Of a stretch of 64,000 bases of DNA, positions 22,014 to 63,911 are shown one piece after another. The stretch spans positions 9,158,001 to 9,222,000 of the forward strand of contig NC_068562.1 of NCBI RefSeq assembly GCF_022201045.2, read 5' to 3'. A program made the position numbers and the translations under genes. The stretch comes from Citrus sinensis (Eukaryota; Streptophyta; Magnoliopsida; Sapindales; Rutaceae). Within the stretch, counting starts at the first letter, position 1. Every line of letters starts with the position of its first letter. The notes below the pieces were generated by a model, which worked only from the letters and a program-made list of their open reading frames with translations, was not told where the DNA came from and searched no databases.

Positions 22014-23127
22014 ATGGCATCTCTTGCAACCATAGCTGCTGTGCAACCAGTCACCATCAAAGGCCTTGGAGGCAGCTCTCTTGCTGGAACTAAGCTCACC
22101 GTCAAGCCAACTCGCCAGAATTTGAGACCCAAAAGCTTCAAGTATATATTTTTCTTAATGAATTGCCTTCAAGCTTTGCTTATGTAGTTAAATTGTTAGT
22201 TATATATGCTCAATTTGGTATGACGCAGGGCTGGTGCTGTAGTGGCTAAGTATGGTGATAAGAGTGTGTACTTTGATTTGGAGGATTTGGGCAACACTAC
22301 GGGCCAGTGGGACTTGTACGGATCAGATGCTCCTTCACCGTACAACTCTCTTCAGGTTTGTTTAATAACAAAATCAATTGCATATTGCCATTGTGTTGAC
22401 AAAAACTCGAATGATAGTGTGTTGAATAAACAAATATTCGAGTAGCTGAAAATTTTCTACGTTCTTGCAATAAATATGAGCTATGATATACTATAAGTTC
22501 AACAATATCTATCCTGTGAACTTCATTGGATCATTGAGCATACATAAAAATCATTGAATCATTCATAAATAATTGAAAACATTGCGATTGCTTTCATTGA
22601 GAGTCGAACTCAAGACCTCCCGCTTACTAAACGGGTGCTCTGAGCTATGAAAGCTTTGTTCCACTATTTTTAGTATGAACATTCAATAGTAATAGAAGCA
22701 GAAAAATAGTATGACGTTACGATTTCAGCATACATCCATGTACCAGAAAAATGAAAAACGAAAAAGAGCTAAGTTTGTAAAGGAATGCACAATGTCTCTG
22801 TATACCAGTTATCCATGAGTTAGTTAATCTCAAGTTAAGTCTTGCAAGATTCATCTCTTTGCCGTAAAATTTAGTTGTGTCCTACGATGTAGAACTTTTA
22901 TAATGTTGAAGGGTAACTTATAGTATATGTATACATTGAAATTGCAGAGCAAGTTCTTTGAGACATTTGCAGCTCCATTCACCAAGAGAGGATTATTGCT
23001 CAAGTTCTTGATATTGGGAGGAGGTTCAACCCTTGCTTACTTCAGTGCTACAGCTAGTGGTGACATTCTCCCAATCAAGAAGGGCCCTCAACTTCCACCA
23101 AAGCTCGGACCACGTGGCAAGATCTAA
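22014..23127 (+). CDS. PSAH: Photosystem I reaction centre subunit VI (PsaH)
   Basis: Small thylakoid membrane subunit of photosystem I that docks phosphorylated LHCII during state transitions. Exons 22014-22141, 22229-22355 and 22948-23127 give 144 residues, the usual length. Exon 1 is the transit peptide ([20 protein letters not shown]). The mature part starts near [20 protein letters not shown] and continues [39 protein letters not shown], the membrane segment [16 protein letters not shown] and the basic/proline tail [16 protein letters not shown]. It is complete, with consensus splice sites. Intron 2 (592 bp) carries a tRNA relic on the other strand. Confidence 0.96.
22589..22654 (-). tRNA. 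tRNA-Thr(AGU) lacking its D-arm, likely pseudogene
   Basis: Read on the minus strand: acceptor GCTTTCA pairs perfectly with TGAAAGC and is followed by discriminator A. The anticodon stem CCCGT/GCGGG encloses loop TTAGTAA (anticodon AGT). The T-arm TTGAG-TTCGACT-CTCAA is perfect and holds the B box. Between acceptor and anticodon arms only TAGCTCAGAGCA remains: about 8 nt that normally form the D-loop are absent, taking most of the A box. Total 66 nt against the usual 74. A TTTT run begins about 10 nt downstream, as for a Pol III terminator. It lies antisense in PsaH intron 2. Loss of the A box and D-arm argues against normal transcription. Confidence 0.85.
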
Positions 23128-32146: not shown

Positions 32147-32884
32147 TTGTTTCATGAAAGATGCAAGTTTAAGACCGATTGAAGGCTCCATCCTGCTGCT
32201 GCTACTTAAGTATGTTTTATCTAAAGAACATTGTTTTAAGGCCCTGGTACAATTTGTCCCGAAGCCTTAGCCAATTACTTTAAGATCTTCAGCAACATGT
32301 TTTAATTAAATTCTTAAATTGCAGCAGTTGCATATGATGTTGATTTGACATCACGGATACTTCTAAAATGATTGATGTTAGTTGTACTATTGAACTAAGT
32401 AGTTGTGAGTAGAATTAGTTAAATATTATTTATTAAAAAAAGTTAAATATTTGATAAAATTTATTGTGGCATGAAATAATTTTAGTAAAAATTATTTTTA
32501 AAAAAAATTTCAAACACTAAAATTAATTTTAACTTTTTAAAAACACTTTTAACCTCATAAAACTAATCTCAAATGGACACAAAATAAGCTCAGAATCTAA
32601 CCTTAATGGTCAGGAGGTATGGTTAATCCGGAGATAAAAGGATGGAAAAAAACAACTCAAGGATATGCAGTCGTGATTAGTGAAGATATACACTAAGCTA
32701 AAAAAGTAGTAATCTTATCTACCAACTTTTTCTTGTTTCGGAGTGTGAATTTTAAAGAACTATAGGGTTAAATCAACCTTCTTTCCTCTCCAAAAATATT
32801 GATTTGCAACAATCAGCAGAGAAGATGTTTACACATCAACTACCAATCTACCAAAACAATAAAGTGAAAAATTGAAGGAACAAA

Positions 32885-34021
32885 ATGGATTCTAAAGGTG
32901 TTCTTATGACCTCTCCCATGAACACATACCTTGAAGAAAAACTCAAGAAGCACTTCAAGCTCTTCAAGTTATGGACCTTTGAGGACAAAAGAAAGTTTTT
33001 CAATGATTATAACGACTTCATCCGAGCTGTGGCATGCAACAGCGGTCGGTGCAGATGCAGAACTGATAGATTCATTGCCTAAACTGGAGATTGTGGCTAC
33101 TTGCAGCGCGGGGTTGGACAAGATTGATTTGGTTAAGTGCAAGGAGAAGGGAATTCAGGTCACCAACACCCCTGATGTGTTGACAGATGATGTAGCTGAT
33201 GCAGCCATTGGGTTGATGCTTGCAGTGTTGAGAAGGTTGCGAGTGTGACTGGTTTGTGAGGAGTGAAGATGGAGAAATGGGATATAAGTTGACTACTAAG
33301 GTGTGTGGCCTTCTTTCTTGATTAATTACCTGTCTTTGGGTACATTTTCTCCTGGGTTTGCAATTCAAATGTACAGATGGTAAATGCTGAGAGTGTGTGT
33401 GTATATATATATACACTTCTTATCAGATTAGATTCAAACTCCAAGACAACCATAACAATGTAATTGTTATATAATTGTTATATAACAGCCTGCTCTTCTT
33501 TTACTTTCTTTTAGATTTCTGGAAGATCAGTAGGCATCATTGGTTTAGGAAGAATAGGCATGGCAGTTGCAAAGAGAGCTGAAGCATTTGGCTGCTTCAT
33601 CAGTTACCGTTCCGGAGCAGAAATACCAAACACCAAATACAAGTCTTCTTGAACTGGCTTCAAACTGCAAAATCTGGTTGTTTCTTGTCCCTTAAACGAT
33701 GAAACTTACCAAATCATCGACCCCTTAATCATCAATGCACTGGGTCCAAAGGGTTTTCTCATCAACATCGGAAGAGGAGCTCTTGTCGATGAATCTGAAT
33801 TGGTCTCTGCATTGCTTGAAGAAGGACTAGCTGGTGCTGGACTTGATGTATTTGAACATGAGCCACAAGTACCTGAGGAGCTTTTTGGCCTCGAAAATGT
33901 AGTGCTTTTGCCTCATGCAGCAAGCGGCACTGAGGAAAGTCGCAAAGCCACGGCTGATATTGTGATTGAGAACTTGGAGGCATGCTTTCTGAATAAACCA
34001 TTGTTGACTCCTGTAGTATGA
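32885..34021 (+). pseudogene. HPR2-like pseudogene, copy B
   Basis: Second member of the array. Exon 1 (32885-33300) and exon 2 (33515-34021) keep the family splice sites and much of the protein: [92 protein letters not shown]. The frame breaks near 33040 (before GADAELID), near 33235 (around RRL.CECDW) and again near 33640-33680, where a stop follows KYKSS and a second shift restores [10 protein letters not shown]. At least three or four independent lesions mean it cannot make a normal enzyme. The catalytic Arg, Glu and His codons survive, so decay is recent relative to duplication. Confidence 0.9.
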
Positions 34022-34340
34022 TTGCAACTTTTGGAGTGCATTCGGGAATATATTTGGAGCAAGCACTTCTTAAATAAAGCTGTATGAATTGATATTGTTA
34101 ATTGAACACTCCAGTACAAAACCCTCATTCCCCTCTCCTCTTGCAGATTGTCTTATCTGCAAATTTGCTAGTTACTGTGACTTATTTTCTCCTATTTTTG
34201 CCGCTAAGAGATAAATGAAACTTTCACAACAAGACAAGCAAACCATGCAGAATAATACAAAACAAGAGACACATGTCCTCTTCCACCGCTTAAAACTCCT
34301 CTGAGAATCAGCTTCAATCTTCACTCTCACAAAAGCAATA

Positions 34341-34523
34341 ACATCAGTGTCCTTATGGTCTGCCCATTATCAAATTATCTTGAACAAGAAATCGAAAAAA
34401 GCTTCAAGGTGTCCTTATGGACAACAACATGGACAACAACAGCAACAACATCATTGTCCTTATGGTCTGCCCAGTATCAAATTATCTTGAACAAGAAATT
34501 GAAAAAAGCTTCAAGGTGTTCAA
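34341..34523. repeat. 106-bp tandem duplication over the start of HPR2 copy C
   Basis: The segment tccttatggtctgccca...cgaaaaaagcttcaaggtgt occurs at about 34350-34414 and again at 34456-34520 (period 106). The first copy lies upstream in another frame relative to the intact one. A short acaacaacatgg repeat sits between them. Confidence 0.85.
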
Positions 34524-35681
34524 GTTATGGCACTTTGAAGACAAGGAACAGTTCATCAACACTCATAAAGATTCCATTCAAGCTGTCGTTGGTAGTGCTG
34601 CAGCTGGGGCAGATGCAGAACTGATTGAATCCTTACCTAAACTAGAGATTGTGGCGACTTGCAGTGTAGGTTTGGACAAAATTGACTTGGCTAGGTGTAA
34701 AGAGAAGGGTATTAGAGTTGCTAACACTCCTGATGTGTTGACTGATGATGTAGCAGACTTAGCCATCGGGTTGATATTGGCTGTGTTGAGGAGGATTTGT
34801 GAGAGTGATAGATATGTCAGAAGTGGGGAGTGGAAGAAGGGAGAGTTCAAGTTGACTACTAAGGTTTTTAGTTTCTGTTTCTTTATTAGCATTTGAAATA
34901 TATCATTGAAGGTTGAGTGTGTCTCATTTTATTTGTTAACATGAATGAGTGAATTTCAGAAAAAATTTAACTGCCGATCTGTATAAGTGTTTGTGCTAAG
35001 TCAAATATTGTAATCTCGTTGTGCAGCTTTTTTCCAACTTTGAATAAGCTTCTATGAAGCTCTAGTACACATAGTTCTCTAATTGGGGTTCTTGTCATCC
35101 GTTCCAATTTGCTTCCTATCTATTTTTTACACTAATTCTTTCTTTTGCCTGCATATGATCAGTTCACTGGAAAATCAGTTGGCATTCTTGGGATGGGCAG
35201 AATAGGCACGGCAATTGCCAAGAGAGCAGAAGCATTTGACTGCATTATCGGCTACAACTCCAGAACTGAGAAACCAAACTTAAACTACAAATACTATCCA
35301 AACCTCATTGACTTGGCTTCAAACTGCCAGATCCTGGTTGTTGCATGTTCCTTAACAGAAGAAACTCAACACATCGTAAATCGACAAGTCATTAATGCAT
35401 TAGGCCCAAAAGGTGTGCTTATCAACATTGGCAGAGGCCTTCTGGTTGATGAACATGAGCTGGTGTCTGCATTGCTTCAAGGAAGATTAGGTGGCGCTGG
35501 ACTTGATGTGTTTGAACATGAGCCTGATGTGCCTGAAGAGCTTATTGGCCTTGAAAATGTAGTGCTGTTGCCTCATGTAGCCAGTGCAACAGTAGAAACT
35601 CGCAAGGCCATGGCTGATCTTGTTGTTGGAAACTTGCAGGCTCACTTTGGGAAGAAACCATTATTAACGCCGGTGGTTTGA
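34417..35681 (+). CDS. HPR2: Hydroxypyruvate/hydroxyphenylpyruvate reductase, copy C
   Basis: Exons 34417-34863 and 35163-35681; 321 residues. Same activity family as copy A. The nucleotide loop reads GMGRIG rather than [31 protein letters not shown] and LPHVASAT carry the catalytic Arg, Glu and His. The intron is short (299 bp). The N-terminus is odd: a 106-bp tandem duplication of the start region places [20 protein letters not shown] before the conserved [19 protein letters not shown]. The usual family start (M.SIGVLM.CP) is gone; translation may begin at 34417, 34429 or the Met in VLMVCP (34462). I give the longest form. Otherwise intact. It differs from A and D in substrate-loop residues, so substrate preference may differ. 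Confidence 0.88.
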
Positions 35682-36409
35682 TAATATTACATGAAACATC
35701 CTGCAAGCTTAATCTTGTTATCATTTTATGCTTTCATGAACTTTAATGATTTATATTATTGAATGTGTCATTATCAAATTGAGTAGGCGACTGCATAGGC
35801 TTTCTTTCTTCAATCAAATGTGAATCATTAAAAATAATAGGTCTTAACAAGGGAAAATTTTAGAAGATCTTAGAATTTTTCCAAAAGACATTATACGTTT
35901 AGGCATAGCCATCTGTTATTGGGTTATTTATGGAACAGCCGAAATGGTTGGTAAACCATAAGCATTGACTTATAAGAATTCAATGCTTATCCCGTTAAAT
36001 TTTTGAGTGCTCTCGTTAAATTTTTATCTATGTGTTATGTGTACCTCTCAATTAATTATGTAAGAGTAAATAAATGTACGATAAGAATTCAATAAATGAG
36101 AGAATATACTTAAAGAAACAATAATTTTTACTTATTTTGTAACTAAGATTTAAGAAACCTTTTAAATCTTATCCCGCAACTTTTACTTGCCTGTACTTAT
36201 TATAATACTCATTATAATAGACAGTGCCAAAATCTCATCCTAAATGTTTTTTTAATTCTCACAAGGGGTATTTAACTGTCACAATTCAAGCATGTGCACA
36301 ACTAATTGTATTTACACCTAAGGTTAAGGATCTGTCTGTAATTTTCCCTCCATTTTGCCTTCACGACTCCTATTTCAAGGGAAATTCAAACGGAAAAATC
36401 ACTGGAAAA

Positions 36410-38117
36410 ATGGAGAAAATAGGTGTTCTTATGACGACTCCAATGTCAAATTACCTCGAACAAGAACTCGCAGCCCGCTTCACTCTCTTTAAACTCTGGA
36501 CTCAATCTTGCAAAAACAAATTTTTCCAAGAGAATTCAAGTGCCATCAGAGCTGTGGTAGGTGACACAAAATGTGGGGCTGATGCAGAGCTGATAGATTC
36601 ACTTCCCACCTTGGAGATAGTGGCAAGTTACAGTGTGGGATTGGACAAGATTGACTTGGACAAGTGTAAAGACAAGGCTGTTAGAGTTACTAACACTCCT
36701 GATGTGTTGACTGATGACGTGGCAGACTTGGCTGTTGGATTGGTTTTGGCTGTTCTGAGAAGGGTTTGTGAGTTTGATGAGTTTGTTAAGTCTGGCAAGT
36801 GGAAAAATGGTCACTTCGAATTGGGTTCTAAGGTTTGTCATCTGGGTTCTTTTGTTTTTGAGCTTTGGTTTGTATTTAGTGACAGTTTATGAGAATGAAT
36901 TAGGAAAGTTTTCATTTTCATTGGATTTGATTTTGATATCATTCCTAACTAGGTACAATTTGCTTCTGGTTCATGAATTTGTCTTTTCTGCATGCAAATT
37001 TCGATTGATAGTGTGATAGTTCTGGATTGATTTGATTTGTATAGTACGGCACAATGCTACTGTATCTTCTTCTTTGTATTGTTCTGTGTTTTATTTTGTA
37101 ACAAACTGTTTAATCACTGGATTTAGGAAGTTGAACTGTTTTTCATCTTAGTTTGGGGTTGAGTACCATTGAAGATCAAGTTTATGAATCTCCATTTTGC
37201 ATATATTAGATCATAAATACGTAGGTCTTCTAAGTCTCAGGAGAGCCCAGTGCGCCGATAAGCATAGATTATGAATGAGATGGAAAGCGATTTATTGCCA
37301 ATCCAAACAGTTTCAAGATAGATTCAGCGAAGAGACAAGTTGAATTGATTTGTGGTGCCTTTTCAGGTGATTTTAGCAATATTGGAGTAAATATGGTGGA
37401 GGGAGAATGACATCTCTCCATAGTTCATAGTTGATTACCTTAGCTTGGGTAGGGAGATTTCAATTGTAGGTATAAAGGGCATGCTAAATATATCTGGATT
37501 GTTGATGTGTTTCATGAATTTACTATTTTCTCATTTAATATTTCCATCTGTTTTTGCTTCTGAAATTTAATTACCTTATCTGTTGTTTTCTCCTTCAGTT
37601 CAGTGGTAAATCTGTCGGCATTGTTGGGCTGGGCAGGATTGGAACAGCAATTGCAAAGAGAGTAGAAGCTTTTGGTTGCCCAATTAGTTATCACTCCAGG
37701 TCGGAGAAATCACATGCAAATTATAAATACTACACAAACATTATTGACTTAGCCTCCAATTGTCAAATCCTCATTGTGGCTTGCTCTCTAACAGAGGAAA
37801 CTCACCACATTGTCAATCGCAAAGTCATTGATGCATTAGGTCCCAGTGGCATTCTCATCAACATTGGACGAGGTGCACATATAGATGAACCGGAGCTGGT
37901 ATCTGCATTGCTTGAAGGAAGATTGGCTGGAGCTGGGCTCGATGTATATGAAAATGAGCCTGAAGTTCCTGAACAAATGCTAGGCCTTAATAATGTAGTC
38001 CTCTTGCCACATGTGGGAAGTGATACAGAGGAAACCAGCAAGGCAATGGCGGACCTTGTAATCGAAAACTTGGTGGCACATTTTAGTAACAAGCCCTTGT
38101 TGACTCCAGTCATATGA
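36410..38117 (+). CDS. HPR2: Hydroxypyruvate/hydroxyphenylpyruvate reductase, copy D
   Basis: Exons 36410-36832 and 37599-38117; 313 residues. The start is set at [20 protein letters not shown], the family start, not at an upstream in-frame Met (36224). The loop is [36 protein letters not shown] and LPHVGSDT hold the catalytic Arg, Glu and His. It ends LLTPVI. Distinctive changes are [18 protein letters not shown] near the N-terminus and [20 protein letters not shown] at the end of exon 1. It is the last array member, 730 bp after copy C's stop. No lesion seen. Confidence 0.92.
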
Positions 38118-45467: not shown

Positions 45468-46971
45468 ATGATGCTATCAGCAAAATCTGAGTCTGACATC
45501 ACAAGCTTGGCACCATCATCACCCTCAAGGTCACCAAAACGTCCTGTGTACTATGTGCAAAGCCCTTCAAGGGATTCTCAGGATGGGGACAAGTCATCCT
45601 CATTGCAACCAAGCCCCATGGAGTCGCCTTCACATCCGTCTTTCGGCAGGCACTCCAGAAACTCTTCTGCCAGCAGGTTTTCAGGCATTTTCCGGTCGTC
45701 TTCTGGGAGGAAAGGGACGAGAAAAAGGAACGATAAAGGGTGGCCTGAGTGTAATGTGATATTGGAAGAAGGAAAATATGATGAGTTTGAAGATAAGGGC
45801 TTTGTAAGAAGGTTTCAGGCCTTTATTGCTCTTTTCAGTTTTGTGCTTTTGTTTACTGTTTTTTGCTTGATTATTTGGGGTGCCAGCAGGCCTTTCAAGG
45901 CAGAGATTACTGTCAAGGTATGCTAATTTAGTTCCTTAATTTCTCTTGTTTTTGGTATCTAATTTTGTTTTTTTGTTATATTTAACTCAGGTTAGTTTAA
46001 CTCATAAAACCTTCTAGGTGATTTTTTCTAGTCATGCTATGCTCACAAAAACAAAAATTAAAAATAAATAACTTTGGTGGGTGAAAAGTTGAAGCATGAG
46101 TAATCAAGGAATGATTTTTAGTACAGAAGGAATTTTAATTCTGTTTGGTTTTATGCAGTTAGAATGCGCAAGGCTAATAAACGGATTTTGCAGTGGAATA
46201 ATCTCAAAATTTTAGAATGAAGCTGCCATTGTGTTTTGTAACTAAAATGAGGCAATTGGATTAGCTAAGAGATGAGATCGTAACAAAAGCTTATGGCTGT
46301 AATCAAATTTTAGGTTCACAGCATATGCATTCTGAATTTTTTCTGGCTGCCTAAAGGACATGTGATCTTTGCAGAGCTTATCAATGCACAACTTTTATGT
46401 CGGTGAGGGTTCAGACTCCACTGGAGTTCCAACAAAGATGCTAACAATGAATGGCTCATTGAAGATAAGCGTGTACAACCCTGCTACAATATTTGGCATT
46501 CATGTCAGCTCCACGCCTATCGATGTCGTCTACTCAGAGATTGTTATTGCAACTGGGCAGGTGAGAACTCTGGTCTCAAACATGTCAACAACAACGAAAA
46601 ATGTTAGTTTTTTCGGTCGTATTAAACTTCTCAATGCTAACAAGCAAAAGCCCTAATCATCTTGCAACGCTGCAACTTGTGATGACTTGCAGTTGAAGAA
46701 ATATTATCAGCCAAGGAAAAGTCACCGAACTGTGTCGGTGAACTTGCAAAGTAACAAGGTTCCACTCTATGGGGCAGGATCAGGTTTAACAATTTCTCCA
46801 ACCGGAGGTGAAGTTCCTTCGACACTGAAGTTTGGAATCCGATCAAGAGGAGAAGTTGTGGGAAAGCTGGTGAAGACAACACACAAGAAGCAAATCACCT
46901 GCCCTTTAGTCATAGACATTCTCAGCACTAAGCCCATCAAGTTCAAGAAGAATGCATGCACATATGACTGA
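45468..46971 (+). CDS. LEA_2 (NDR1/HIN1-like) membrane protein, parent copy
   Basis: Plant protein of the LEA hydroxyproline-rich/LEA_2 family. Exons 45468-45917, 46375-46560, 46693-46971; 304 residues. The cytosolic Ser/Pro/Arg-rich region 1-115 holds the signature SPKRPVYYVQSPSRDSQDG and SHPSFGRHSRNSSASRFSG. One membrane helix is at about 117-138 (IALFSFVLLFTVFCLIIWGA). The LEA_2 beta-sandwich covers about 160-285, with GVPTKMLTMNGSLKISVYNP, ATIFGIHVSSTPIDVVYSEI, KKYYQPRKSHRTVSVNLQSN and GKLVKTTHKKQITCPLVIDI. Two adjacent Mets begin the frame; the first is used. Molecular role is unknown; relatives link membrane and wall in stress. Its exons 2-3 are duplicated in the chimeric gene downstream. 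Confidence 0.92.
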
Positions 46972-49900
46972 TCAGACCGAATGTTGGTTGATGAAGTGTT
47001 GAGTTGTGTATAAGTTGCTCATGTTTTTCCTGTTATTGTATTTTCTGGATTGCGGCCTGGGTTTCTTCCACTTCATAAGGAAAAATGAGATGTATTCATA
47101 GTCCTTTTAAGGTTCACGCAAGCAATATGCAAAGCTATGTTGCACGTACGATATGTTTAGTCTTTTGAAAGGATCATGGAAGTGAAATAATGTTTGCCAA
47201 GAATGTAAATCAACAGAGGAGATTGTGTATAATTCTATGCTTGTTGCTTAGCTCCATCTTTCTTGCCGCTGCATTCCAAACCCAATGAGGTTCCGTGTGA
47301 GCATTAAATCTTAAAGTAAGCTTTTAAATAAGTCAAAATATTTTATTGTCTCTTCCCATATAAAATTGTGTTTCATATGGTAACTCGGGCTTACTAAGAC
47401 AAGGAGGCTAGCAAAAATGGAAATATAGTAAACATTAACATTCTATGAAAAAAATAAATTAATTTAATAAAAGTCATGAAAATTTAATCTCAATAAAATT
47501 ATACCACACTATCTTCTTTAATTGGTAAAATCGGATATTTGACCCAAAAAAATAAAAAATAAAAAAAAATAAAAAGCGAAAGTTTTGGATCATTGGAATT
47601 AGTATTTCTTTTGGAAAAAAAATAAATATAAATAAAACAAGAATAAAAAAGAGGACCAAAGGGGTGCACGTCCATAACTTTAGTAGTTTCTTTGACTGTC
47701 GACAGCTCCCCTTGTATCTTCATTTCGCATTGTTTTAGTTAAAAATCTTTTCACGCAAAACCCTCACAAGTCCAGATCTCTTATTGAATCTCACTGCATA
47801 TTCTCAAGTACCCAGAAATCAAAATCACTCGGTTTCCATGTTTCCCGCAAAACCCACTTCAAGATTCATCCTTTTCACCCTCTCTCTCCTTCTACTCATC
47901 TCATTCTTCACCACCACCACCATTGCAATTGCCTCTGATCTTGACACTGTCAAGGCAGAGATTACTGTCAAGGTATGCTAATTTAGTTCCTTAATTTCTC
48001 TTGTTTTTGGTATCTAATTTTGTTTTTTTGTTATATTTAACTCAGGTTAGTTTAACTCATAAAACCTTCTAGGTGATTTTTTCTAGTCATGCTATGCTCA
48101 CAAAAACAAAAATTAAAAATAAATAACTTTGGTGGGTGAAAAGTTGAAGCATGAGTAATCAAGGAATGATTTTAATACAGAAGGAATTTTAATTCTGTTT
48201 GGTTTTATGTAGTTAAAATGCGCAAGGCTAATAAACGGATTTTGTAGTGGAATAATCTCAAAATTCTATAATGAAGCTGCCACTGTGTTTTGTAGCTAAA
48301 ATGAGGCAATTGGATTGGCTAAGAGATGAGATTAATTGTAACAAAAGCTCATGTCTGTAATCAAATTTTAGGTTCATATCATATGCATTCTGAATTTTTT
48401 CTGGCTGCCTAAAGGACATTTGATCTTTGCAGAGCTTATCAATGCACAACTTCTATGTCGGTGAGGGTTCAGACTCCACTGGAGTTCCAACAAAGATGCT
48501 AACAATGAATGGCTCATTGAAGATAAGCGTGTACAACCCTGCTACAATATTTGGCATTCATGTCAGCTCCACGCCTATCGATGTCGTCTACTCAGAGATT
48601 GTTATTGCAACTGGGCAGGTGAGAACTCTGGTCTCAAACATGTCAACAACAACGAAAAATGTTAGTTTTTTCGGTCGTATTAAACTTCTCAATGCTAACA
48701 AGCAAAAGCCCTAATCATCTTGCAACGCTGCAACTTGTGATGACTTGCAGTTGAAGAAATATTATCAGCCAAGGAAAAGTCACCGAACTGTGTCGGTGAA
48801 CTTGCAAGGTAACAAGGTTCCACTCTACGGGGCAGGATCAGGTTTGACAATTACTCCAACCGGAGGTGAAGTTCCGTCGACACTGAAGTTTGGAATCCGA
48901 TCAAGAGGAGAAGCTGTGGGAAAGCTGGTGAAGACAACACACAAGAAGCAAATTACCTGCCCTTTAGTCATCGACATTCTCAGCACTAAGCCCATCAAGT
49001 TCAAGAAGAATGCATGCACATATGACTGATCAGACCGAATGTTGGTTGATGAAGTGTTGAGTTTTGTATAAGTTGCTCATGTTTTTCCTGTTATTGTATT
49101 TTCTGGATTGCGGCCTGGGTTTCTTCCACTTCATAAGGAAAAATGAGATGTATTCATAGTCCTTTTAAGGTTCACGCAAGCAATATGCAAAGCTATGTTG
49201 CACGTACGATATGTTTAGTCTTTTGAAAGGATCATGGAAGTGAAATAATGTTTGCCAAGAATGTAAATCAACAGAGGAGATTGTGTATAATTCTATGCTT
49301 GTTGCTTAGAGTCCATCTTTCTTGCTGCTGCATTCCAAACCCAATGAGGTTCCGTGTGTGCATTAAATCTTAAAGTAAGCGTTTAAATAAGTCAACTAAA
49401 TATTTTATTGTCTCTTCTCATATAAAATTGTGTTTCATATGGTAACTCGGGCTTACTAAGACAAGCAGGCTAGCAAAAATGGAAATATAGTAAACATTAA
49501 CATTCTATGGCAAAAATAAATTAATTTAATAAAAGTCATGAAAATTTAATCTCAATAAAATTATACCACACTATCTTCTTTAATTGGTAAAATCGGATAT
49601 TTGACCCAAAAAAATAAAAAATAAAAAAAAATAAAAAGCGAAAGTTTTGGATCATTGGAATTAGTATTTCTTTTGGAAAAAAAATAAATATAAATAAAAC
49701 AAGAATAAAAAAGAGGACCAAAGGGGTGCACGTCCATAACTTTAGTAGTTTCTTTGACTGTCGACAGCTCCCCTTGTATCTTCATTTCGCATTGTTTTAG
49801 TTAAAAATCTTTTCACGCAAAACCCTCACAAGTCCAGATCTCTTATTGAATCTCACTGCATATTCTCAAGTACCCAGAAATCAAAATCACTCGGTTTCCA

Positions 49901-50011
49901 TGTTTCCCGCAAAACCCACTTCAAGATTCATCCTTTTCACCCTCTCTCTCCTTCTACTCATCTCATTCTTCACCACCACCACCATTGCCATTGCCTCTGA
50001 TCTTGACACTG
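45895..50011. repeat. 2.06-kb direct tandem duplication joining two genes
   Basis: Copy 1 is 45895-47949 and copy 2 is 47950-50011. Each runs from tcaaggcagagattactgtc in LEA_2 exon 1, through LEA_2 introns, exons 2-3, 3' UTR and the PDI promoter, to the gatcttgacactg of PDI exon 1. The central junction reads gacactg|tcaaggcag with no more than one or two bases of shared sequence, suggesting end joining rather than recombination between repeats. By eye LEA_2 intron 1 differs at about 3 percent between copies while the last 450 bp (PDI promoter and leader) is almost identical. Confidence 0.93.
47838..49029 (+). CDS. Chimeric gene: PDI signal peptide fused to LEA_2 domain
   Basis: Exons 47838-47972, 48433-48618, 48751-49029; 199 residues. 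Exon 1 codes for residues 1-37 of the downstream PDI-like protein ([37 protein letters not shown]) and passes in frame into VKAEITVK, the last residues of LEA_2 exon 1. Exons 2-3 are the LEA_2 domain to the natural stop. Donor gtatgc, donor gtgaga and both acceptors are intact. The promoter is a copy of the PDI promoter. Compared with the parent LEA_2 protein, it loses the 115-residue cytosolic region and membrane helix and gains a cleavable-looking signal peptide, so the predicted product is a secreted or luminal LEA_2 domain. Against the parent, exon 2 has one silent change and exon 3 has three replacements (S to G, S to T, V to A) and five silent ones. Expression is unproven. Confidence 0.8.
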
Positions 50012-53000
50012 AAAATGGTAATGATAACGATGACGTGGATAATGAACTTGATGAGTTACTAGCAATTGATCAAGAAGAGCAAGAACATGAACAAGATTCT
50101 CAAGTGGATGATGCGGACTCGAAATTCTCTGAGGCACAGGTGCTGTCAAGGGCACAGAGGATAGTTGTTGAGTTGAACACAGAGAATTGGAAAAAGGTTA
50201 CTGAAGGGAATGAGTTTGTTCTGGTTCTTGGATATGCCCCTTGGTGTCCAAGGAGTGCTGAGCTCATGCCTCAGTTTGCTGAGGCTGCTACTTTGCTTAA
50301 GGAATTGAAATGTCCTATTTTGATGGCTAAGCTTGACGCTGATAGATACCCCAAGGCTGCTGCTGCACTTGAGATCAAAGGGTTCCCTACTTTGCTCTTT
50401 TTCGTCAATGGCACCGCTCAGGCTTACACCGGTGGATTTTCTGCGTAAGTTCTGCTTATTGATTTTTTTTTGTTCTATTTTGTTGTCCGTTTATAACTTC
50501 TTTTTTCCTACAAATGTTGTCTAGGGCCTTAAATAACATAAAGATGTAATTTTTGGGTTGTTTTCTTTGTGAATTTATGCTTAATTGTCTAAATTTGAGC
50601 AGCACCTTTACTTGACCAAAGTATACGTGCCCTCCTTTTTTGTATGATTGTAATAGTTTGATTTTAGAAATAAGTGGGTAGTGCTACTAAAACCTTAATA
50701 TGTGTGTTAACTTGTTAAATGGGTTGTGCGGAATCAGGCAAGATATTGTGGTATGGGCTAGGAAAAAGACTGGTGCTCCTGTTATGAGAACAAACACTGT
50801 GAATGAGGCAGAAGAATTTCTCAAGAAGTACCAAACTTTTGTTCTCGGCATGTTTAAGAAATTTGAGGTATGTGGCTTTGGATTATTTTTTGTGTTTGCT
50901 CATAGTATTCGTGAAATTCTAGATCCTGATTTGGAATCAGACTACTACTTTTGTACAAGTTCTTTTTGCTAATGCTGTTTTTAATCCAAAGGGTGTCTGT
51001 ACTTGGTTTCAGAGGAAAATCATGCAGAATAAAATGATTGCATCCAATTAATTTTAATATGTTGCTCAGATGAATACAGTTACGAATCATAGAGATGGAA
51101 TTTATTTTGATTAATGAAGCTGGGTCATTGCCTAGCTTCTCGACAGGTATCCCCTAATTTAGCTAAATTGATATTTTCTGCTTCTAAGTTTAGGGTGTTG
51201 ATGATAAAGACGGTACACCCTGTGGATGGTAACACAACAAAGCTAATATTATTTGGTGTATTCTAACATTCTGGTCAAACTTGGCTTGTTTCAAGTGATG
51301 CAGACCCAGATTTAAGTAATTCTTACTGGCAAAACTGGTTGGACCAAGAATTGGCTGCTTTGCTTTTATAATTGTATATGAAGTCAAATGTAGCAATTGA
51401 ACATTTTTGAAAGCACTCTGCGAATTGAAATTTGTCTAGATGTGAAGTCTCTCTCTCTTTTTTTCTCTGTTGCTTAGGTAATATGTTTTGGATTACCAAT
51501 TGTTTGGTTGATCATGCGGTTCAGATTCCTTCAAGTGGTAGACTAGTAGTGAGCTTGTCATTCTGAATAATATCTTGCCCACTTTTGAAGTGATAATGTA
51601 GCCAAACAAAAAAAAATGTGATAGTGATATGAGCATTATCTCACATCCTATAACAATTTCATGGTCAGTTTATATAGTTTAGGAACTTCATGGCTACTTT
51701 CTCATCTTTCAGCTTGTCATACAAATTGTTTTGTGTCGCTAATGTTTTAAAATAAATAGTCAAGATCGTTTTAAATAAGATATGTTTCAGCTGCATTTGC
51801 TTATGTACTGGTGTTCATTTTACATGACACACAAATATTCTCAGGGATCCGATTATGAAGAATTTGTAAAAACAGCAGCTGCAGATAATGAAATCCAGTT
51901 TGTTGAAACAAGCAACTTTGAGGTTGCCAAAGTCCTGTACCCTGATATCAAATCTACCGACCACTTCCTTGGAATTGTTAAAAGTGAGCCAGATAGATAC
52001 ACTGGATATGGTGAGTTGGTGATTTTACAATAATATTTCTGTTGTTGGCATATTGGTTTGCCCTGAAATACTTTTTGATTGGTTACTACTTTCGCATCTT
52101 GTTAAAACTTATGCTTTGTTAGCAAATGCTTCAAGGGAGTGGCTGTTTTTATTGCATTTACCAAATGTGGTCAGCTTGTTAACTAAGAAATTTCATCAGT
52201 ATCATATCTTATATAATATTGTTAATTTGAAACCAAACTTTGAAAAATTTTTAGACAACATAAATTTAAAATTCATTCAACCTTAGTTGTTTTCTTGTTT
52301 CCATACAGTATGAGCAAGAATTTCCTGAGTTAATGAAAAATAAATTTGTTTGGTTTTGCAGAAGAGACCTTCATAATGGACAAAATATTGCAGTTTTTGA
52401 ACTACAACAAGTTTCCATTAGTTACCAAACTGACTGATATAAATTCTGCCAGTGTTCACTCCAGCCCTATCAAACTTCAGGTTGCAATAATTCCAACTTA
52501 TTATTTTTCGTTTAAGCTTTTATCTTGTTTTATTTCTTTACACAAATATTATTCTTTGGACCTTTTCCCAAATAAGATTATGAGTTAAACAAGGAATTAA
52601 ACTGCTTAATGGAGAGGGAGCTTCAACATTACAGCACTCATAATTCTGTGGAAAGATAATTCACCATTTTTGCCTTTTGTTAGTCCCGTCTGTAACAACT
52701 TAAGTTGATTTCTTGCCTTGCCAAGATTGTGTTGATCATAAGCTATACTTGCATTGATCATTAACTGTACTTGCATGCTAACGAGGTAAAGCTTGTGATC
52801 CAGGTTTATGTCTTTGCAAAAGCTGATGATTTAAAGAGTCTTCTTGAGCCACTTGAAGATATAGCAAGAAATTTCAAGGGAAAGGTATTTAGTTTTAGAA
52901 TTGTTGAAGCTACTAAAGAAAACCATAATCTTTTGCAATTATATTCTGATAATGTTATTATCTTGGTGCAGATCATGTTTACAGCAGTAGATATCGCAGA

Positions 53001-54672
53001 TGAAGACCTGGCGAAGCCATTTTTAACTTTATTTGGGCTTGAAGAATCAAAGAACACTGTGGTTAGATTTCAATATTGACTATTAGCTGTCTTTTGAGTA
53101 TCCTTTAACTGAAGCTGTAAACTGATAGCTTCTTGTCTGTCTGATAGGTGACTGCCTTTGATAACAAAGCCATTTCAAAGTTTTTGTTGGAGTCAGATCT
53201 CACGCCAAGCAACATAGAAGTAAATTTCTCATCTGTTTGGTGTGTACTTTTCTGAAACATCTACATAGGCTAATTACTTTGTCTGAAATGATATTTTTAG
53301 GAGTTTTGCTCAAGGCTTCTGCATGGTACTCTGACGCCTTACTTGAAATCACAGCCAATACCAGATAACGTGAGTGCGATATTTCTTACTCGTTGGATGA
53401 GCACTTGGGATCCTGTTTGTATTATCTAAATTTATATTTTATTTTTCAATCTCGGATTTCAAAAAATGTTCAACCTGACATCTTTTTCAATTCTTTAATT
53501 TTTTTTCATTTAAAATGTCAAATTTATTGATGAGTGTCAAACTTGCAGACAAACGCAAACGTGCAGATTGTTGTGGGAAAGACATTTGACGACTTGGTTT
53601 TGAACAGTCACAAGGATGTTCTTCTAGAGGTTTGCATATGTTCTTTCTGTCTGCATATAGCTCTTTTTTATGTTTAAATGGTGATAAGATCTTGTTTAAG
53701 CTATTCGATAATCATACTCATTATACTGTATTTAGGTGTGCCTATTGAACAGAAGATGAAATCATTCAAGTGCACCATTTGTCATTGTTCTAATATATGT
53801 AAAGTATTGTGTTGTTTGATAAACCTCAAAACATGATCCAATGACTGGTCAGAGTGCTGAAGCATGCATGCCACAATCTCCATAAAAGTGGAATCATAAG
53901 TAATAGAGGATATTGCTTCTCCTTTATCTTGTTGAACAATGGATCTCATTTGTCTGCATTAGTACTCTTGCTTTGATGCATGTAATCGGACTTCTGATCT
54001 GTTGGAATTTTATGCACTTTGGTGAAATACCTTGTTTCAATCGATGCAAAATAGGTATATACACCATGGTGTGTCAGATGTGAGACAACTAGCAAGCAAA
54101 TCGAAAAGCTGGCTAAGCACTTCAAGGGTTTGGACAATCTAGTCATTGCAAAGATAGATGCTTCTGCAAATGAGCATCCAAAACTGCAGGTGTGTGTTTC
54201 AGAAACTTAGTCCCCAGAATCTTCTTGCAATTTTGTTATACATTTCAGAATATTTACAAAAGAGAAAAGAAAAAGGATATGTTTCTGACAATATTTAGTT
54301 TTTAGAAATTGGAGCTCAATTGAGAAACGTTTTAGACCTCATTATAGTTCATAAAGAATGATGATAGCTTATGAATTGTCGTTATATGTCATTGCAGGTT
54401 GAAGAGTACCCAACACTTCTATTCTACCCAGCTGGTGATAAAGCAAATCCGGTAATTGTCTAATAATATATGCCTATTCATTTATTTTGTCTAATATGTA
54501 CTCTTATCTTTCTAATGTAAGACTTTCATTTTCTGGACAGATCAAAGTTTCAGCAAGGTCCAGCTCAAAGAACATAGCAGCATTTATCAAGGAACAATTG
54601 AAAGAAAAAGATCAATCCCCAAAAGATGAACAATTGAAAGAAAAGGATCAAGCTCCCAAAGATGAATTATAG
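49900..54672 (+). CDS. PDIL1-5: Protein disulfide isomerase-like, PDIL1-5/1-6 type
   Basis: ER-lumen thioredoxin-fold protein. Exons: 49900-50444, 50738-50867, 51845-52010, 52362-52480, 52804-52884, 52972-53061, 53148-53219, 53301-53369, 53549-53629, 54055-54189, 54398-54451, 54541-54672; all phases agree; 557 residues. Signal peptide 1-33, acidic linker 34-75, domain a with active site WCPRS at 115-119 (second Cys replaced by Ser), then redox-silent b and b' regions ([40 protein letters not shown]), domain a' with WCVRC at 456-460, and C-terminal KDEL for ER retention. The one-Cys first site matches what I recall of the PDIL1-5/1-6 subgroup (WCARS), so it is ancestral. The last exon carries a duplicated LKEKDQ(S/A)PKDE unit. 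Its promoter and first 37 codons were duplicated to make the chimeric gene. Confidence 0.93.
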
Positions 54673-58265: not shown

Positions 58266-60090
58266 ATGGAGACAGGAGGAAGTAGTGCACAAGGAGGCGA
58301 TAGGAGGCTTCACGACCCCGTGGCGCTGAGGGAGATAGTCAGTGAAGCACGGGAAAAAGTCATGTTCGACCGGATGGAACGGATGGAAAAACAGATGGAG
58401 ACCTTGACAACCATCCTGTATGAGCTGCGGAGGGAGCGAAGGGTAACCCAAGAGGGAAGGGTGAGAGGCGGAGGAGTGGCACAGGGTCCCGATAGTGCGA
58501 GGAGAAGTCAAACCACCGGGGGATATGGTGGTGAGAGAAGTAACGTGCCTCTGCGGGGAGAATTCCATAGAGAAAGAGAGCAGTCCCCGGCAAGACAGAT
58601 TTCGGACGAGGCCGACGGGGTGGTGAATGCGGAGGAAACAGAGTTGAGGCAACACTTGCATGATGTAGAGCAAGAGCGGGATCAAGTTGTTGCACGTGAC
58701 CCTGGTCGTGCAGGGCAGCTGGAGGAGGAAGTGCGCAGACTAGCGCAGGTAATTGACGACATGCAAGGAAGGAACAGGGCCCCTGGTTGGAGGATAATGC
58801 TGGACGGAGAATCACCGCTCGCAGCAGAGATCATGAGGGCGGTTATTCCGAGAGATTTCCGCCTCCCAGACCTCAGATACTCGGGAAGAACTGACCCGCT
58901 GGTGCACATAGAGCGCTTCAACGACATAACTGGGGTACAAGGATTATCTCAATCCCAAAGGTGCAGGGTGTTCCCATTATCCCTTGAGGGACGTGCACGA
59001 GAATGGTACAGGAAACTTCCTCGGGGCAGCGTTAAAACCTTCGAGCAGATGTGCTAGGAATTCGCCGAGCAGTTTAGTGGGGCAATGGCACCAGAGGATG
59101 ACATGATGGAGCTGAAAAGCATGAAACAGGGGGAGCAAGAAACCCTTCGGGAATTCATCAAGAGGTTTCATCGGGCTGTCCTCGATTTGGGAGCCTTCAA
59201 CCACCCTCAGGCGTTAAGGGGGTTGAAAGACGGGGTGAAGATAGGAAGGCTGTGGTACAATTTGAGAAGCCCAACCATTCAAACGTACGCAGCCGCATAC
59301 GAGCAGGCTAAAAGAGACATCGAGATTGAAGAGGAGAAGGCTGCACGGATTAAGACAGACCAGTTAGAAGGGTCGGGGAGGAAAGAGAAGAAAGCATTAC
59401 CGGGGAATGGACCGATTAGGAGGAGGGACCACCAGGCCTCCGGTAGTGGAGCAGGAGGTCGGGTAACTGCTTACCAGCCTCATCAGAGGCCATCACAGTA
59501 TCAGCGCAGCAGGGCGCAACCTCCTCGTTCCCCAGCTAGGGAGCCTTGGAGAAGGCATGATTCGACATCTGCTGGTCTTCATCGATATTCCCACGGTAGC
59601 AGAGCGAGCAGACCAGAAGTGCTTCCACCGCCCCCGACTCAGAGCGGGGCAAACAGAGAAAGAGCAGTGCACCTGATCGACCAGGACCAGGACTATGGGC
59701 GGTACACTTCCTTGAAGATGTCCCTGGATGAGGTGTACGAGGCCATAAAGGATCGAGGGCTGCTGCACCTCCCCACACCAATAACAAAGCTACCCAACAG
59801 GAGGGATAGAGGACGTTATTGTAAGTTCCATGGCACCCATGGCCATACCACAGCAGAGTGTAGAGATCTCAAGACACAGGTCGAAGATCTGGTGAGAAAT
59901 TGGTACCTGGACGAGTTTGTGGATGGGACTTTCCTGACGGTGGCCACAGCAGGTGAAGGAGAGCAGAGTGATAGAGACCTGAGGCGCGAGCAGCCCGCAG
60001 TAAGGGTGATAGCTGGGGGCCCAACATTGGCCGGAGATTCCAACAGATCCATAAAAAATTATGCTAGGTACGCCATGACCAGTAAATAGA
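58266..60090 (+). other. gag region of the Ty3/Gypsy element
   Basis: Codes for a coiled, charged N-terminal part, then a capsid-like region (DPLVHIERFNDITGVQGLSQ, ARE WYRKLPRGS, LREFIKRFHRAV) and a zinc-knuckle-like motif CKFHGTHGHTTAEC near 59820-59862, as in Tat elements. Treated as a fossil; interruptions are not itemised. Confidence 0.85.
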
Positions 60091-60134
60091 TACTCTTCAA
60101 CACCCCAACAGCCAAACGAGCAAGGGTCAGGCAA

Positions 60135-63100
60135 GTGCCAATCATGTGGACGGATGAGGATGAGAAAGGGGTTCTATACCCCCACGAGGATGCTTTAGTC
60201 ATCAAGGCTACTGTTGCCAGCAAGAAATTTGACCGGATATTGATTGATACAGGGAGCTCAGTTGATGTGTTATTCAAGTCAACCCTGGAAGAGATGGGAA
60301 TAGCCGACCGGAAGTTGGAATACACCAACACCTCCTTGAAGGGGTTCGGAGGAGGGAAGCTGGTCCCGCTGGGCGTGGTCGAACTGCCTATCATAATTGG
60401 GAGTTCCCCGACAGAAAGGACAATAATGCTGGACTTTGTCGTAGTGGATGAGGAAGGTCCTTACCAAATAATCCTAGGTCGGCCATTTTTAAGGATGAGC
60501 AAAGCGGTGTTGTCCAACCATTATCTGGCTCTGAAGTACCGGGTGAATGGGGTAGTAGGAGTGGTACGAGGAGACCAGAGGATCGCGAGAAGCTGCTACT
60601 CCTCGGCAGCAAGGGAAGCAATGCAGATAACATCCCTCGATACCCGAGTGGAAAACAAGAACGGCAGACAAGAACCTGTAGAGGATCTGGAAACCGTAAG
60701 CCTGGGGCCAGAGAACCCGGGAAAGACGATCAGAATCGGGTCGAGACTTAAGGGAGAGCGAAAGCAGGAGTTGGTGAAATGCTTACAGGCTCATGCTGAT
60801 GTGTTTGCTTGGACACATGAAGACATGCCAGGGATTGACCCTGAGGTAGCATGTCATAAGTTGGCAATAAAGAAAGGTGCTCGGGCAGTAAGGCAGAAGA
60901 GGAGGTGCTTCAACCAGGAGAGGTATGAGGCTATAAATGGCGAGGTGGAGAAGCTCCTGGGAGCAGGGTTCATTCGGGAAGTCAGTTACCCTGAGTGGAT
61001 ATCGAATGTAGTGTTGGTAAAGAAGGCAAACGGCAAGTGGAGGATGTGTGTGGATTTCACAGACCTCAATAAGGCGTGCCCGAAAGACAGCTTCCCTTTG
61101 CCCAAGATCGATCAGTTAGTAGACTCAACGGCTGGGCACGGTCTGCTTAGCTTCATGGACGCGTTCTCGGGATACAACCAGATCCCCATGCACGAGCAGG
61201 ATGAGGAGAGCACGGCTTTCATCACTAACCAAGGTTTGTTCTGTTACAGGGTAATGCCATTCGGTCTCAAAAATGCTGGGGCCACCTATCAAAGGCTGGT
61301 GAACAAAGTCTTTAAGCCGTTGATTGGGAGAACCATGGAGGTGTACGTGGATGACATGATCACCAAGTCCAAAATCCCGGAGGAACATGTCAGACACCTC
61401 GAGGAGACATTCGAGCTTTTGAGGAAGTATAAGATGAAGCTCAACCCGGAGAAGTGTGCTTTTGGGGTCGAGTCAGGGAAATTCCTTGGATTCATGGTGA
61501 GCCATAGGGGGATTGAAGCGAATCCCGAGAAAATCCAGGCGGTTGTGCAGATGAAGTCTCCTCGAAACCTGAAGGAGATGCAGAGCCTCACGGGGAGGTT
61601 GGCGGCGTTGAGCAGATTCATATCCAAGGCTACAGATAAGTGTCAGCCATTCTTTCAAGTGATAAGGAGGGGAAAGAAAACAGAATGGACCCCAGAATGC
61701 GAGGAAGCCTTCCAGAACTTGAAACAATACTTGCAACAAGCTCCGCTGCTGTCCACACCGAGGGAGGGGGACAAGTTATATCTGTATTTGGCGGTATCGG
61801 ATCGGGCCGCCAGTTCTGTTCTGGTGAGAGAGGAAGAAGGAGTTCAGTATCCGATATACTACACCAGCAAGGCCCTCATCGACGCTGAGACCAGATACCC
61901 ACTGTTGGAGAAATGGGCACTTGCCCTTGTGGTTGCTGCTCGGAAGTTGAGGCCATATTTTCAAGCATTCCCAGTCTCGGTAATAACAAACCAGCCATTG
62001 CGTCAAACTCTGCACAAGCCAGATGCCTCTGGTCGGCTCGTCAAGTGGGCTGTAGAGCTGAGCGAGTTCGACATAGACTATAAACCCCGCGCAGCGATAA
62101 AGGCCCAAGCAATGGCCGATTTCGTAGCTGAGTTCACAGAGCCCGAAGTATGCTTAGATCAACAAGATGCAGTTATAGGCAGTGACGAAACTCAAGTATG
62201 GCAGATGTCTGTGGATGGGTCGTCAGGGGAGCGGGGTTCAGGAGCAGGGATTGTCTTGGAAGGCCCAGAGGGGGAGGAGATCTCTTATGCTGTAAAATTG
62301 GAATTTGCAGCCACAAATAACCAGGCAGAGTATGAAGCCTTGATAGCAGGTCTGGAATTGGCTCAGGCCGTGAAGGCAGACAGAGTTAAGATCAGAACTA
62401 ATTCCCAGCTGGTGGCGAATCATGTCAATGAAAGATTCCAACCAAGAGAGGAGAAGATGAAGCAGTACCTGAAGATAGTCAAGCAGATGATGGGGAAATT
62501 CGAGGCAGTGGAGGTGATACAAATCCCCAGGGAGCAGAATAGTCGAGCAGACATTTTGGCTAGGATGGCAGCAGTAGCCGACCCAAAAATGCCAAAGTCG
62601 GTCCCTCTGGAGGTGAAGTCCGGCCCAAGTATCGAGCAGAATTTGGGGGTGCTGCGGATAGAACAAAAATGCTCGTGGAGGGACCCGATAGTTTCATACC
62701 TTAGAGACGGGGCATTACCACCAGATAAGCTGCGAGCTCGGAAGATTAGAGCCCAGGCCTCGAGATACACGATGATTGATGGGGTATTGTATCGGCGAGG
62801 ATACACACTACCGTTCCTTCGGTGTTTGGATGAGGACGACGCGGATTACGTACTGAGAGAAGTACATGAAGGAATTTGCGGAAATCATTCTGGCGGGAGG
62901 TCCCTGGCCCACAAGGTTCTAAGGCAGGGATATTTCTGGCCGACAATGCACCGGGATGCGCAAGAGAAGACCAGGAGTTGTGTAAGCTGCCAGAGTTTTG
63001 TAAATTTCTCTAACCAGCCCCCATAGAAGCTCACCTCTATGGCCTCCCCTTGGCCATTTGCTCGATGGGGAATTGATCTGATCGGCCCATTGCCAAAGGG

Positions 63101-63911
63101 ACGAGGAGCAGCAACACATGCAATAGTTGCTATAGATTACTTCACGAAGTGGATAGAGGTAGAGGCCCTTAGCAGGATCACAGAGAAGAAAACAACAGAC
63201 TTCGTGTGGAGAAACCTGGTCTGTCGATACGGGATCCCTTATGCCTTGGTAACGGATAATGGCAGGCAGTTCGATAATCACAGCTTCAGGGATTTCTGCC
63301 AGAACCTCGGGATAGAGCTGAAGTATTGCTCGCCTGCTCACCCTCAATCGAATGGACAAGTAGAAGCAGCCAACAAGACCATCAAGAGGCTTTTGAAAAC
63401 CAGGCTCGGAGCAAAAAAGGGTGCGTGGGTTGACGAGCTGCCAGGTGTGCTATGGGCATACAGAACAACCCACAAAACCGCAACTGGGGAGACACCTTTC
63501 GCTTTGGCTTTCGGACATAAAGCGGTCGTGCCGGCTGAGATAGGAACGACCACACACCGGACAAATCATTTCAATGAGCAGGAGAACGACGAGCAGATAT
63601 GTTTGAATCTTAATCTGCTAACGGAGAGGAGGGAGCAAGCAGCCAAGCGATCAGGCATTTACCAACAGAGGGTTGCTCGGTATTACAACCAGAAGGTGAA
63701 CATACGGCAATTCAGGGTCGGAGACTGGGTACTGAGAAGAGTGAATCAGAGCACCAAAGATTCGACTCAAGGAGTGCTGGGACCGAATTGGGAAGGGCCA
63801 TATAGAGTCAAGCAGATAGCGGGACCCGGAGCTTACAAGCTGGTTCGCGCAGACGGCCACGAGGTGAAACGCCCATGGAACGCAGCACACCTCCGGAAAT
63901 ACTTCCAGTAA
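60135..63911 (+). other. pol region of the Ty3/Gypsy element (PR-RT-RH-aRH-INT)
   Basis: Protease motif ILIDTGSSVDVLF near 60240; reverse transcriptase from about 60900 with KKANGKWRMCVDFTDLNKA and YVDDM near 61345; RNase H about 61740-62110; second, archaeal-type RNase H starting MSVDGSSGERGSGAG near 62205 to LARMAA near 62570; integrase zinc finger (H...H...CVSC) about 62860-62990; and catalytic core with IDLIGPLPKGRG, VTDNGRQFDN and HPQSNGQVEAANKTIKRLL. The domain order supports Ty3/Gypsy Tat lineage. No chromodomain seen after the integrase. Confidence 0.9.

What the first reader, a model, noticed from the sequence alone, without database searches (positions are those of the whole stretch)
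47838..49029. New chimeric gene: PDI promoter and signal peptide joined in frame to a LEA_2 domain
A tandem duplication with breakpoints in two different exons produced a third gene between two intact parents. The join keeps the reading frame (GAC ACT GTC AAG GCA), all splice sites survive, and a whole promoter came with it. The product exchanges a cytosolic tail and membrane anchor for an ER signal peptide, moving a LEA_2 domain from membrane-bound to probably secreted, under a PDI-gene promoter.
Basis: partly seen in the sequence, partly recalled or inferred. Interest (0 to 1): 0.88.

Follow-up and report, generated by a model that had tools for sequence, protein, structure and literature searches.

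The report
Secreted chimera: PDI leader plus LEA_2
In what looks like a plant genome, a 2-kb stretch spanning the end of one gene and the start of its neighbour was copied in tandem, creating an intact new gene that joins the export signal of an endoplasmic-reticulum enzyme to the outer half of a protein resembling cellulose-synthase companions; it is a clean example of a known way of making new genes, and no evidence yet shows that it is expressed.

Summary
Confirmed at the stated coordinates. Window 45895-47949 is repeated head to tail as 47950-50011 (97.9% identical). The join fuses codons 1-37 of a KDEL-ending protein disulfide isomerase (PDI), in frame, to the ectodomain codons of a LEA_2 gene. 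Both introns, the stop codon and the whole intergenic region upstream of the PDI gene are kept. Product: 199 aa.

I refine the reading. The LEA_2 parent looks like a COMPANION OF CELLULOSE SYNTHASE (CC) protein: 22 of 26 residues match an AT1G45688 peptide, and the CC1 microtubule-binding motif RPVYYVQS is exact. On CC1 topology the LEA_2 domain already lies outside the cell. The chimera therefore does not move it across a membrane. It cuts it loose from its anchor and microtubule-binding tail.

The copies differ in patches: long near-identical tracts beside blocks up to 6% different. This suggests gene conversion, so the event is probably older than the mean divergence implies. dN/dS of about 0.16 hints at, but does not prove, selection on the chimera.

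No expression data or relative genome could be reached, so expression, secretion and function are inferred. Chimeric genes by tandem duplication are a known kind, though one study found very little evidence of them among rice fusion genes.

The parts
45468..46971 (+). Parent 1: LEA_2 gene, CC-like, 304 aa; exons 45468-45917, 46375-46560, 46693-46971
   Evidence: Gene model; Pfam LEA_2 E 1.6e-06; RPVYYVQS 8/8 and 22/26 to an AT1G45688 peptide
45895..47949 (+). Left copy of the duplicated unit
47950..50011 (+). Right copy of the duplicated unit
46972..47837 (+). Intergenic region upstream of the chimera: parent 1 3' flank plus the presumed PDI promoter
   Evidence: promoter function inferred
47838..49029 (+). 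Chimeric gene, 199 aa; exons 47838-47972, 48433-48618, 48751-49029
   Evidence: Pfam LEA_2 E 2.2e-06
47838..47948 (+). PDI-derived codons 1-37, including the presumed signal peptide (likely cleavage after A32, TIAIA before SD)
   Evidence: Identical residues to the PDI parent; hydropathy peak residues 10-24; cleavage site judged by eye, no predictor run
47949..47950 (+). New junction, GACACTG|TCAAGGCAG
49030..49899 (+). Second copy of the intergenic region, now upstream of the intact PDI gene
49900..54672 (+). Parent 2: protein disulfide isomerase gene, 12 exons, 557 aa, ends KDEL
   Evidence: TIGR01130 ER_PDI_fam 351.1 bits, cut-off 344.25; PDB PDI matches, best E 9.9e-67

Best explanation
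A single head-to-tail duplication of about 2,055 bp joined the first 37 codons of a PDI gene to the ectodomain exons of the LEA_2 (CC-like) gene just upstream. Shown: an open chimeric reading frame with usable splice sites between two intact parents. Inferred: the copied PDI upstream region drives it; the PDI signal peptide takes the product into the ER and is removed; with no membrane anchor and no KDEL the LEA_2 ectodomain is secreted to the cell wall as a soluble protein. There it may bind whatever the parent's ectodomain binds, without the parent's link to microtubules. Patches of near-identity suggest that gene conversion with one or both parents has gone on since the duplication.
For: Duplication, junction, frame and splice sites. 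LEA_2 domain kept: (E 2.2e-06 against 1.6e-06 in the parent). Residues 1-37 identical to the PDI parent, whose product is an ER-type PDI ending in KDEL. The chimera's only hydrophobic segment (windows of mean 1.6 or more) is the leader, 15-residue peak 2.71 from residue 10 and 19-residue peak 2.08; the parent's anchor has a 19-residue peak of 2.93. Differences in the 160 shared codons: 3 nonsynonymous, 6 synonymous, dN/dS 0.16; P 0.007-0.017 if all nine arose without constraint. Patchiness: the four longest substitution-free runs sum to 1302 bp, reached in 0 of 200,000 shuffles; in non-coding sites alone P 6e-05 of 100,000 shuffles.
Against: No transcript, protein or population data were available. 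If about half of the nine coding changes fell on a constrained parent and the chimera drifted, the same counts have P 0.036-0.112, so selection on the chimera is not established. No outgroup to say which copy changed. Substitutions are as dense in coding as in non-coding sequence (10 of 601 against 24 of 1454). Absence of coding indels is weak (4 indel events in all; 29% of the unit is coding, my arithmetic). Patchy identity could also come from merged haplotypes, and the top-four statistic was chosen after seeing the pattern.
Confidence: 0.6

Rival explanations
1. A real duplication, but the chimera is an inert by-product: transcribed or not, it does nothing and is kept intact by its youth and by gene conversion from the parents.
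For: Mean divergence only 1.7%; long substitution-free tracts suggest conversion; coding and non-coding parts diverge equally; [quoted passage not shown]
Against: Open frame and splice sites intact although one block differs by 6%; low dN/dS, with the reservations above.
Confidence: 0.27
2. Assembly artefact: two alleles of one locus laid end to end, so the chimera does not exist.
For: The copies differ by a level and in a patchy way that alleles could also show. No reads or second assembly could be checked.
Against: No N in 64 kb; the unit is only 2 kb, starts and ends inside exons, and the join is in frame (6.6% of the uniformly placed breakpoint pairs counted are in frame within coding sequence).
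Confidence: 0.08
3. The PDI leader is not cleaved in the new context and serves as a signal anchor, so the product is a short type II membrane protein.
For: The leader is hydrophobic enough for a 19-residue peak of 2.08.
Against: All residues up to five past the likely cleavage site (SDLDT) are those of the PDI parent; the polar TTTT stretch and A-I-A before S suit cleavage (by eye, established signal-peptide rules, recalled).
Confidence: 0.08

Closest known systems
Chimeric genes formed by tandem duplication in Drosophila yakuba (PMC5460883; passages)
   Same: Duplication that does not respect gene boundaries makes a chimera from the 5' part of one gene and the 3' part of another; 76 chimeras among 1116 tandem duplications, 24 of 76 with raised expression.
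   Different: Those were found in a population sample with RNA-seq; here one locus without expression data, but with an identifiable change of protein targeting.
Fusion genes in Oryza (PMC9199173; passages)
   Same: New plant genes from parts of two parents, both still present (their Type I).
   Different: That study reports very little evidence of fusion by tandem duplication; 2 of 35 Type I cases had the parents in the same region.
COMPANION OF CELLULOSE SYNTHASE 1 (CC1), Arabidopsis (PMC6382854; passages)
   Same: The parent has the exact first microtubule-binding motif, a single hydrophobic anchor and a C-terminal domain; the chimera keeps the part that is apoplastic in CC1.
   Different: The chimera lacks the microtubule-binding tail and the anchor, so it cannot act on microtubules as CC1 does.
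Relocalised duplicates in Arabidopsis (PMC4202327; abstract and section list)
   Same: Duplicate products sent to a new place in the cell: 19 of 128 pairs with GFP data.
   Different: The abstract speaks of sequence mutations that likely relocated two products; here a whole leader was taken from another gene.

Membership tests
Chimeric gene formed by tandem duplication | Adjacent head-to-tail copies with breakpoints inside two genes | tested here: met
Chimeric gene formed by tandem duplication | Both parental genes intact on either side | tested here: met
   by hand-made gene models
Chimeric gene formed by tandem duplication | Open reading frame across the junction | tested here: met
Chimeric gene formed by tandem duplication | Chimeric transcript | not testable with these tools
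   No RNA data
Chimeric gene formed by tandem duplication | Absent from outgroup species | not testable with these tools
   No genome held for the window; scans of the viral and the bacterial/archaeal collections found no relative; no plant collection is on hand
LEA_2 (PF03168), chimera | Pfam score above the gathering cut-off | tested here: met
   28.5 bits, cut-off 25.4
CC family, parent 45468-46971 | First microtubule-binding motif RPVYYVQS | tested here: met
   8 of 8 at residue 25
CC family, parent 45468-46971 | Motifs 2 to 4 of CC1 | tested here: inconclusive
   Ungapped best matches: motif 4 5 of 8 at residue 91, in the tail; motif 2 4 of 10 at 163 and motif 3 4 of 8 at 175, both outside the tail, hence not recognised
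CC family, parent 45468-46971 | N-terminal tail, one anchor, C-terminal domain | tested here: met
   One hydropathy peak (19 residues from 118) and LEA_2 at 180-269; orientation in the membrane not tested
CC family, parent 45468-46971 | Association with cellulose synthase | not testable with these tools
   Needs experiment
CC family, chimera | Microtubule-binding tail and membrane anchor | tested here: not met
   Both replaced by the PDI leader
Secreted protein, chimera | Cleavable signal peptide, no anchor, no ER-retention signal | tested here: inconclusive
   Leader shared with the PDI parent, no second hydrophobic segment, ends CTYD not KDEL; no signal-peptide predictor was run

The most novel reading that the evidence does not exclude
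The chimera is a working soluble decoy of a cellulose-synthase companion: a free CC-type ectodomain, made under PDI control, that competes in the cell wall with the membrane-tethered parent and so loosens the coupling between microtubules and cellulose synthesis, with its sequence kept in step by gene conversion from its neighbours.
Probability: 0.1. Interest if true: 0.75.

Novelty: new member of a known kind. Interest (0 to 1): 0.4.

Why it matters
It is a very readable case of a new gene made in one step, with both parents still in place, in which a protein loses its anchor and gains an export signal. If expressed, it would be a natural version of a CC-type ectodomain without its tail, and so a way to ask what that ectodomain does; the passages I read describe the function of the tail but give none for the outer domain.

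Tried and rejected
Relatives: the window's own genome could not be searched because none is held. Scans of viral contigs and of bacterial and archaeal genomes with the LEA_2 parent found 0 relatives among 4 and 52 pattern matches. So the event could not be dated against an outgroup, nor changes assigned to one copy. A PDB sequence search with the chimera found 0 matches up to E 10, and NCBIfam 0 up to E 0.01. No structure was predicted: the chimera is a spliced protein and I took the stated rule of that tool not to cover it, so I did not send it. A weak Pfam match of the LEA_2 parent to Claudin_2 (13.8 bits, cut-off 29.1) was set aside.

Junction mechanism: the join can be read as blunt, or as two template switches, because ACTGTCAAGG at the junction also ends LEA_2 exon 1 (45909) and TCAAGG occurs at both 45895 and 45913. 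I could not tell these apart and do not claim either.

Chance of the layout: over 2,505,825 uniformly placed breakpoint pairs, 499,220 fall in coding sequence on both sides, 166,406 are in frame, and 5,364 also keep the leader and drop the anchor. The last class was defined after seeing the data, so it is descriptive only.

Constraint as the sole cause of the patchy identity was rejected: the long runs include introns and intergenic sequence, and the pattern holds in non-coding sites alone.

Ages use substitution rates recalled from memory (7e-9 and 2.5e-9 per site per year), so they are rough: 1.2-3.3 My from the mean, 3.7-10.5 My from dS, 4.6-12.9 My from the most different block.

Full report
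What is there. I take the window for plant nuclear DNA because it holds intron-bearing genes with plant-type families (LEA_2 with a CC-type tail, a PDF2-like C-terminal domain); no whole genome is held for it. A unit of 2055 bp, 45895-47949, is followed at once by a second copy, 47950-50011. BLAST of 45468-50300 against the window shows the pair at 97.87% over 2066 columns and no further copy at E up to 1e-5. The left end of the unit lies in exon 1 of a LEA_2 gene, 23 bases before its donor site. The right end lies in exon 1 of a PDI gene, at base 112 of its coding sequence. The result, left to right, is an intact LEA_2 gene, the chimera and an intact PDI gene.

The chimera. Both introns keep GT and AG, and the stop is that of the parent. 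Residues 1-37 equal the PDI product. Codon 38 straddles the junction. Of residues 38-199, 158 of 162 equal the LEA_2 parent from its residue 143 on. The four differences are the straddling residue (F to V) and S/G, S/T and V/A in exon 3. Pfam finds LEA_2 in the chimera at 28.5 bits and in the parent at 28.9, cut-off 25.4.

The parents. My PDI model has 12 exons and 557 codons and ends KDEL. It matches TIGR01130 ER_PDI_fam at 351.1 bits, cut-off 344.25, and PDB disulfide isomerases, best E 9.9e-67. The LEA_2 parent has 304 aa, one strong hydrophobic segment (19-residue window from residue 118, mean 2.93) and LEA_2 at 180-269. Its N-terminal tail holds RPVYYVQS, exactly the first of four microtubule-binding regions mapped by NMR in CC1 (PMC6382854, passages). 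It also matches 22 of 26 residues of a peptide listed for AT1G45688 (PMC3433687, passage; comparison). That AT1G45688 is CC1 is my recollection; the two quoted peptides agree over the motif. Motif 4 matches 5 of 8; motifs 2 and 3 were not recognised in the tail. I therefore call the parent CC-like.

What the fusion changes. [quoted passage not shown] If the parent is arranged alike, its LEA_2 domain already lies outside. The chimera drops the tail and the anchor and starts with the PDI leader: two positive residues, a hydrophobic stretch of about 15 residues, then TTTTIAIA before SD (by eye). It has no second hydrophobic segment and no KDEL. Secretion as a soluble protein is the natural inference, but no predictor or experiment was run.

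Regulation. The whole intergenic stretch was copied: 866 bp before the chimera, 870 bp before the PDI gene. The 388 bases just before the chimera's start codon show no difference from those before the PDI start codon. Both copies also have the same kind of neighbour upstream, the 3' end of a LEA_2 coding sequence. Expression like that of the PDI gene is likely but not shown.

Patchy divergence. The 34 substitutions are not spread evenly. Substitution-free runs of 477, 354, 245 and 226 bp (the last holds a one-base indel) alternate with dense blocks, such as 15 in 46121-46362. The longest run has P 0.004 and the sum of the four longest was reached in 0 of 200,000 shuffles. In non-coding sites alone the longest run has P 0.014 and the sum 6e-05. 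I chose the top-four statistic after seeing the pattern. Gene conversion after the duplication is the simplest reading; merged haplotypes would also give patches. If conversion is right, the dense blocks date the event better than the mean.

Selection. Over 160 shared codons there are 6 synonymous and 3 nonsynonymous differences: dS 0.052, dN 0.0084, ratio 0.16. If all nine had arisen freely, 3 or fewer nonsynonymous has P 0.007-0.017, depending on the transition bias. If half fell on a parent with ratio 0.1-0.3 and the chimera was free, P is 0.036-0.112. Overall substitution density is the same in coding (10 of 601) and non-coding (24 of 1454) sequence. This leans towards constraint on the chimera but does not settle it.

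Place among known things. Chimeras by tandem duplication are described in flies: 76 among 1116 tandem duplications in D. yakuba, 24 of the 76 with raised expression (PMC5460883, passages). In four Oryza genomes 310 fusion genes were found, but with very little evidence of the tandem route; 2 of 35 Type I cases had both parents in the same region (PMC9199173, passages). Relocalised duplicates are known in Arabidopsis, 19 of 128 pairs with GFP data (PMC4202327, abstract). My paper searches listed no report recognisable as this gene: chimeric genes with tandem duplication (all 15, 2, 6 and 6 papers listed), chimeric genes in rice or Arabidopsis (15 of 74 listed), secreted LEA_2 (1 paper), the CC apoplastic domain (2 papers) and relocalisation (15 of 514 listed). 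They cover only the held open-access library, and I saw listings plus parts of six papers.

Verdict. It is a new member of a known kind, with an attractive functional twist that rests on inference.

Noticed in passing
window 54592-54666: A 36-base repeat (2.1 copies) at the end of the PDI gene duplicates the tail, so the protein reads [16 protein letters not shown], a KDE motif followed by the final KDEL.
   Followed up: partly
window 29400-38117, + strand: A row of 2-hydroxyacid dehydrogenase genes or gene pieces. Three ORFs (29400, 34417, 35145) were scanned with Pfam and all three match; ORFs at 31673, 36224 and 37554 look alike by eye and were not scanned.
   Followed up: partly
window 19915-21327, + strand: Peroxidase-like gene in two ORFs, both matching Pfam peroxidase, covering profile 1-92 and 146-237 of 237; the middle was not looked for.
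   Followed up: partly
window 60135-63026, + strand (neighbouring ORFs 58266-63911): Retrotransposon polyprotein with reverse transcriptase, RNase H and integrase zinc-binding matches; the neighbouring ORFs were not scanned.
   Followed up: partly
window 13124-15791, + strand: Gene with a START match just above its cut-off (22.2 bits, cut-off 22) and a PDF2-like C-terminal match (175.6 bits), as in plant HD-ZIP IV proteins (name recalled).
   Followed up: partly
window 17592-18065, - strand: Ribosomal protein S17 ORF with an N-terminal extension, perhaps plastid-targeted (Pfam match at residues 56-121).
   Followed up: no
window 22589-22654, - strand: tRNA-Thr (AGT), found by both Rfam and ARAGORN.
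   Followed up: yes
window 45909-45918, 47946-47955 and 47964-47973: The decamer ACTGTCAAGG at the new junction also ends LEA_2 exon 1 in both copies; these are its only 3 places on the + strand of the window. It may be a trace of template switching.
   Followed up: partly
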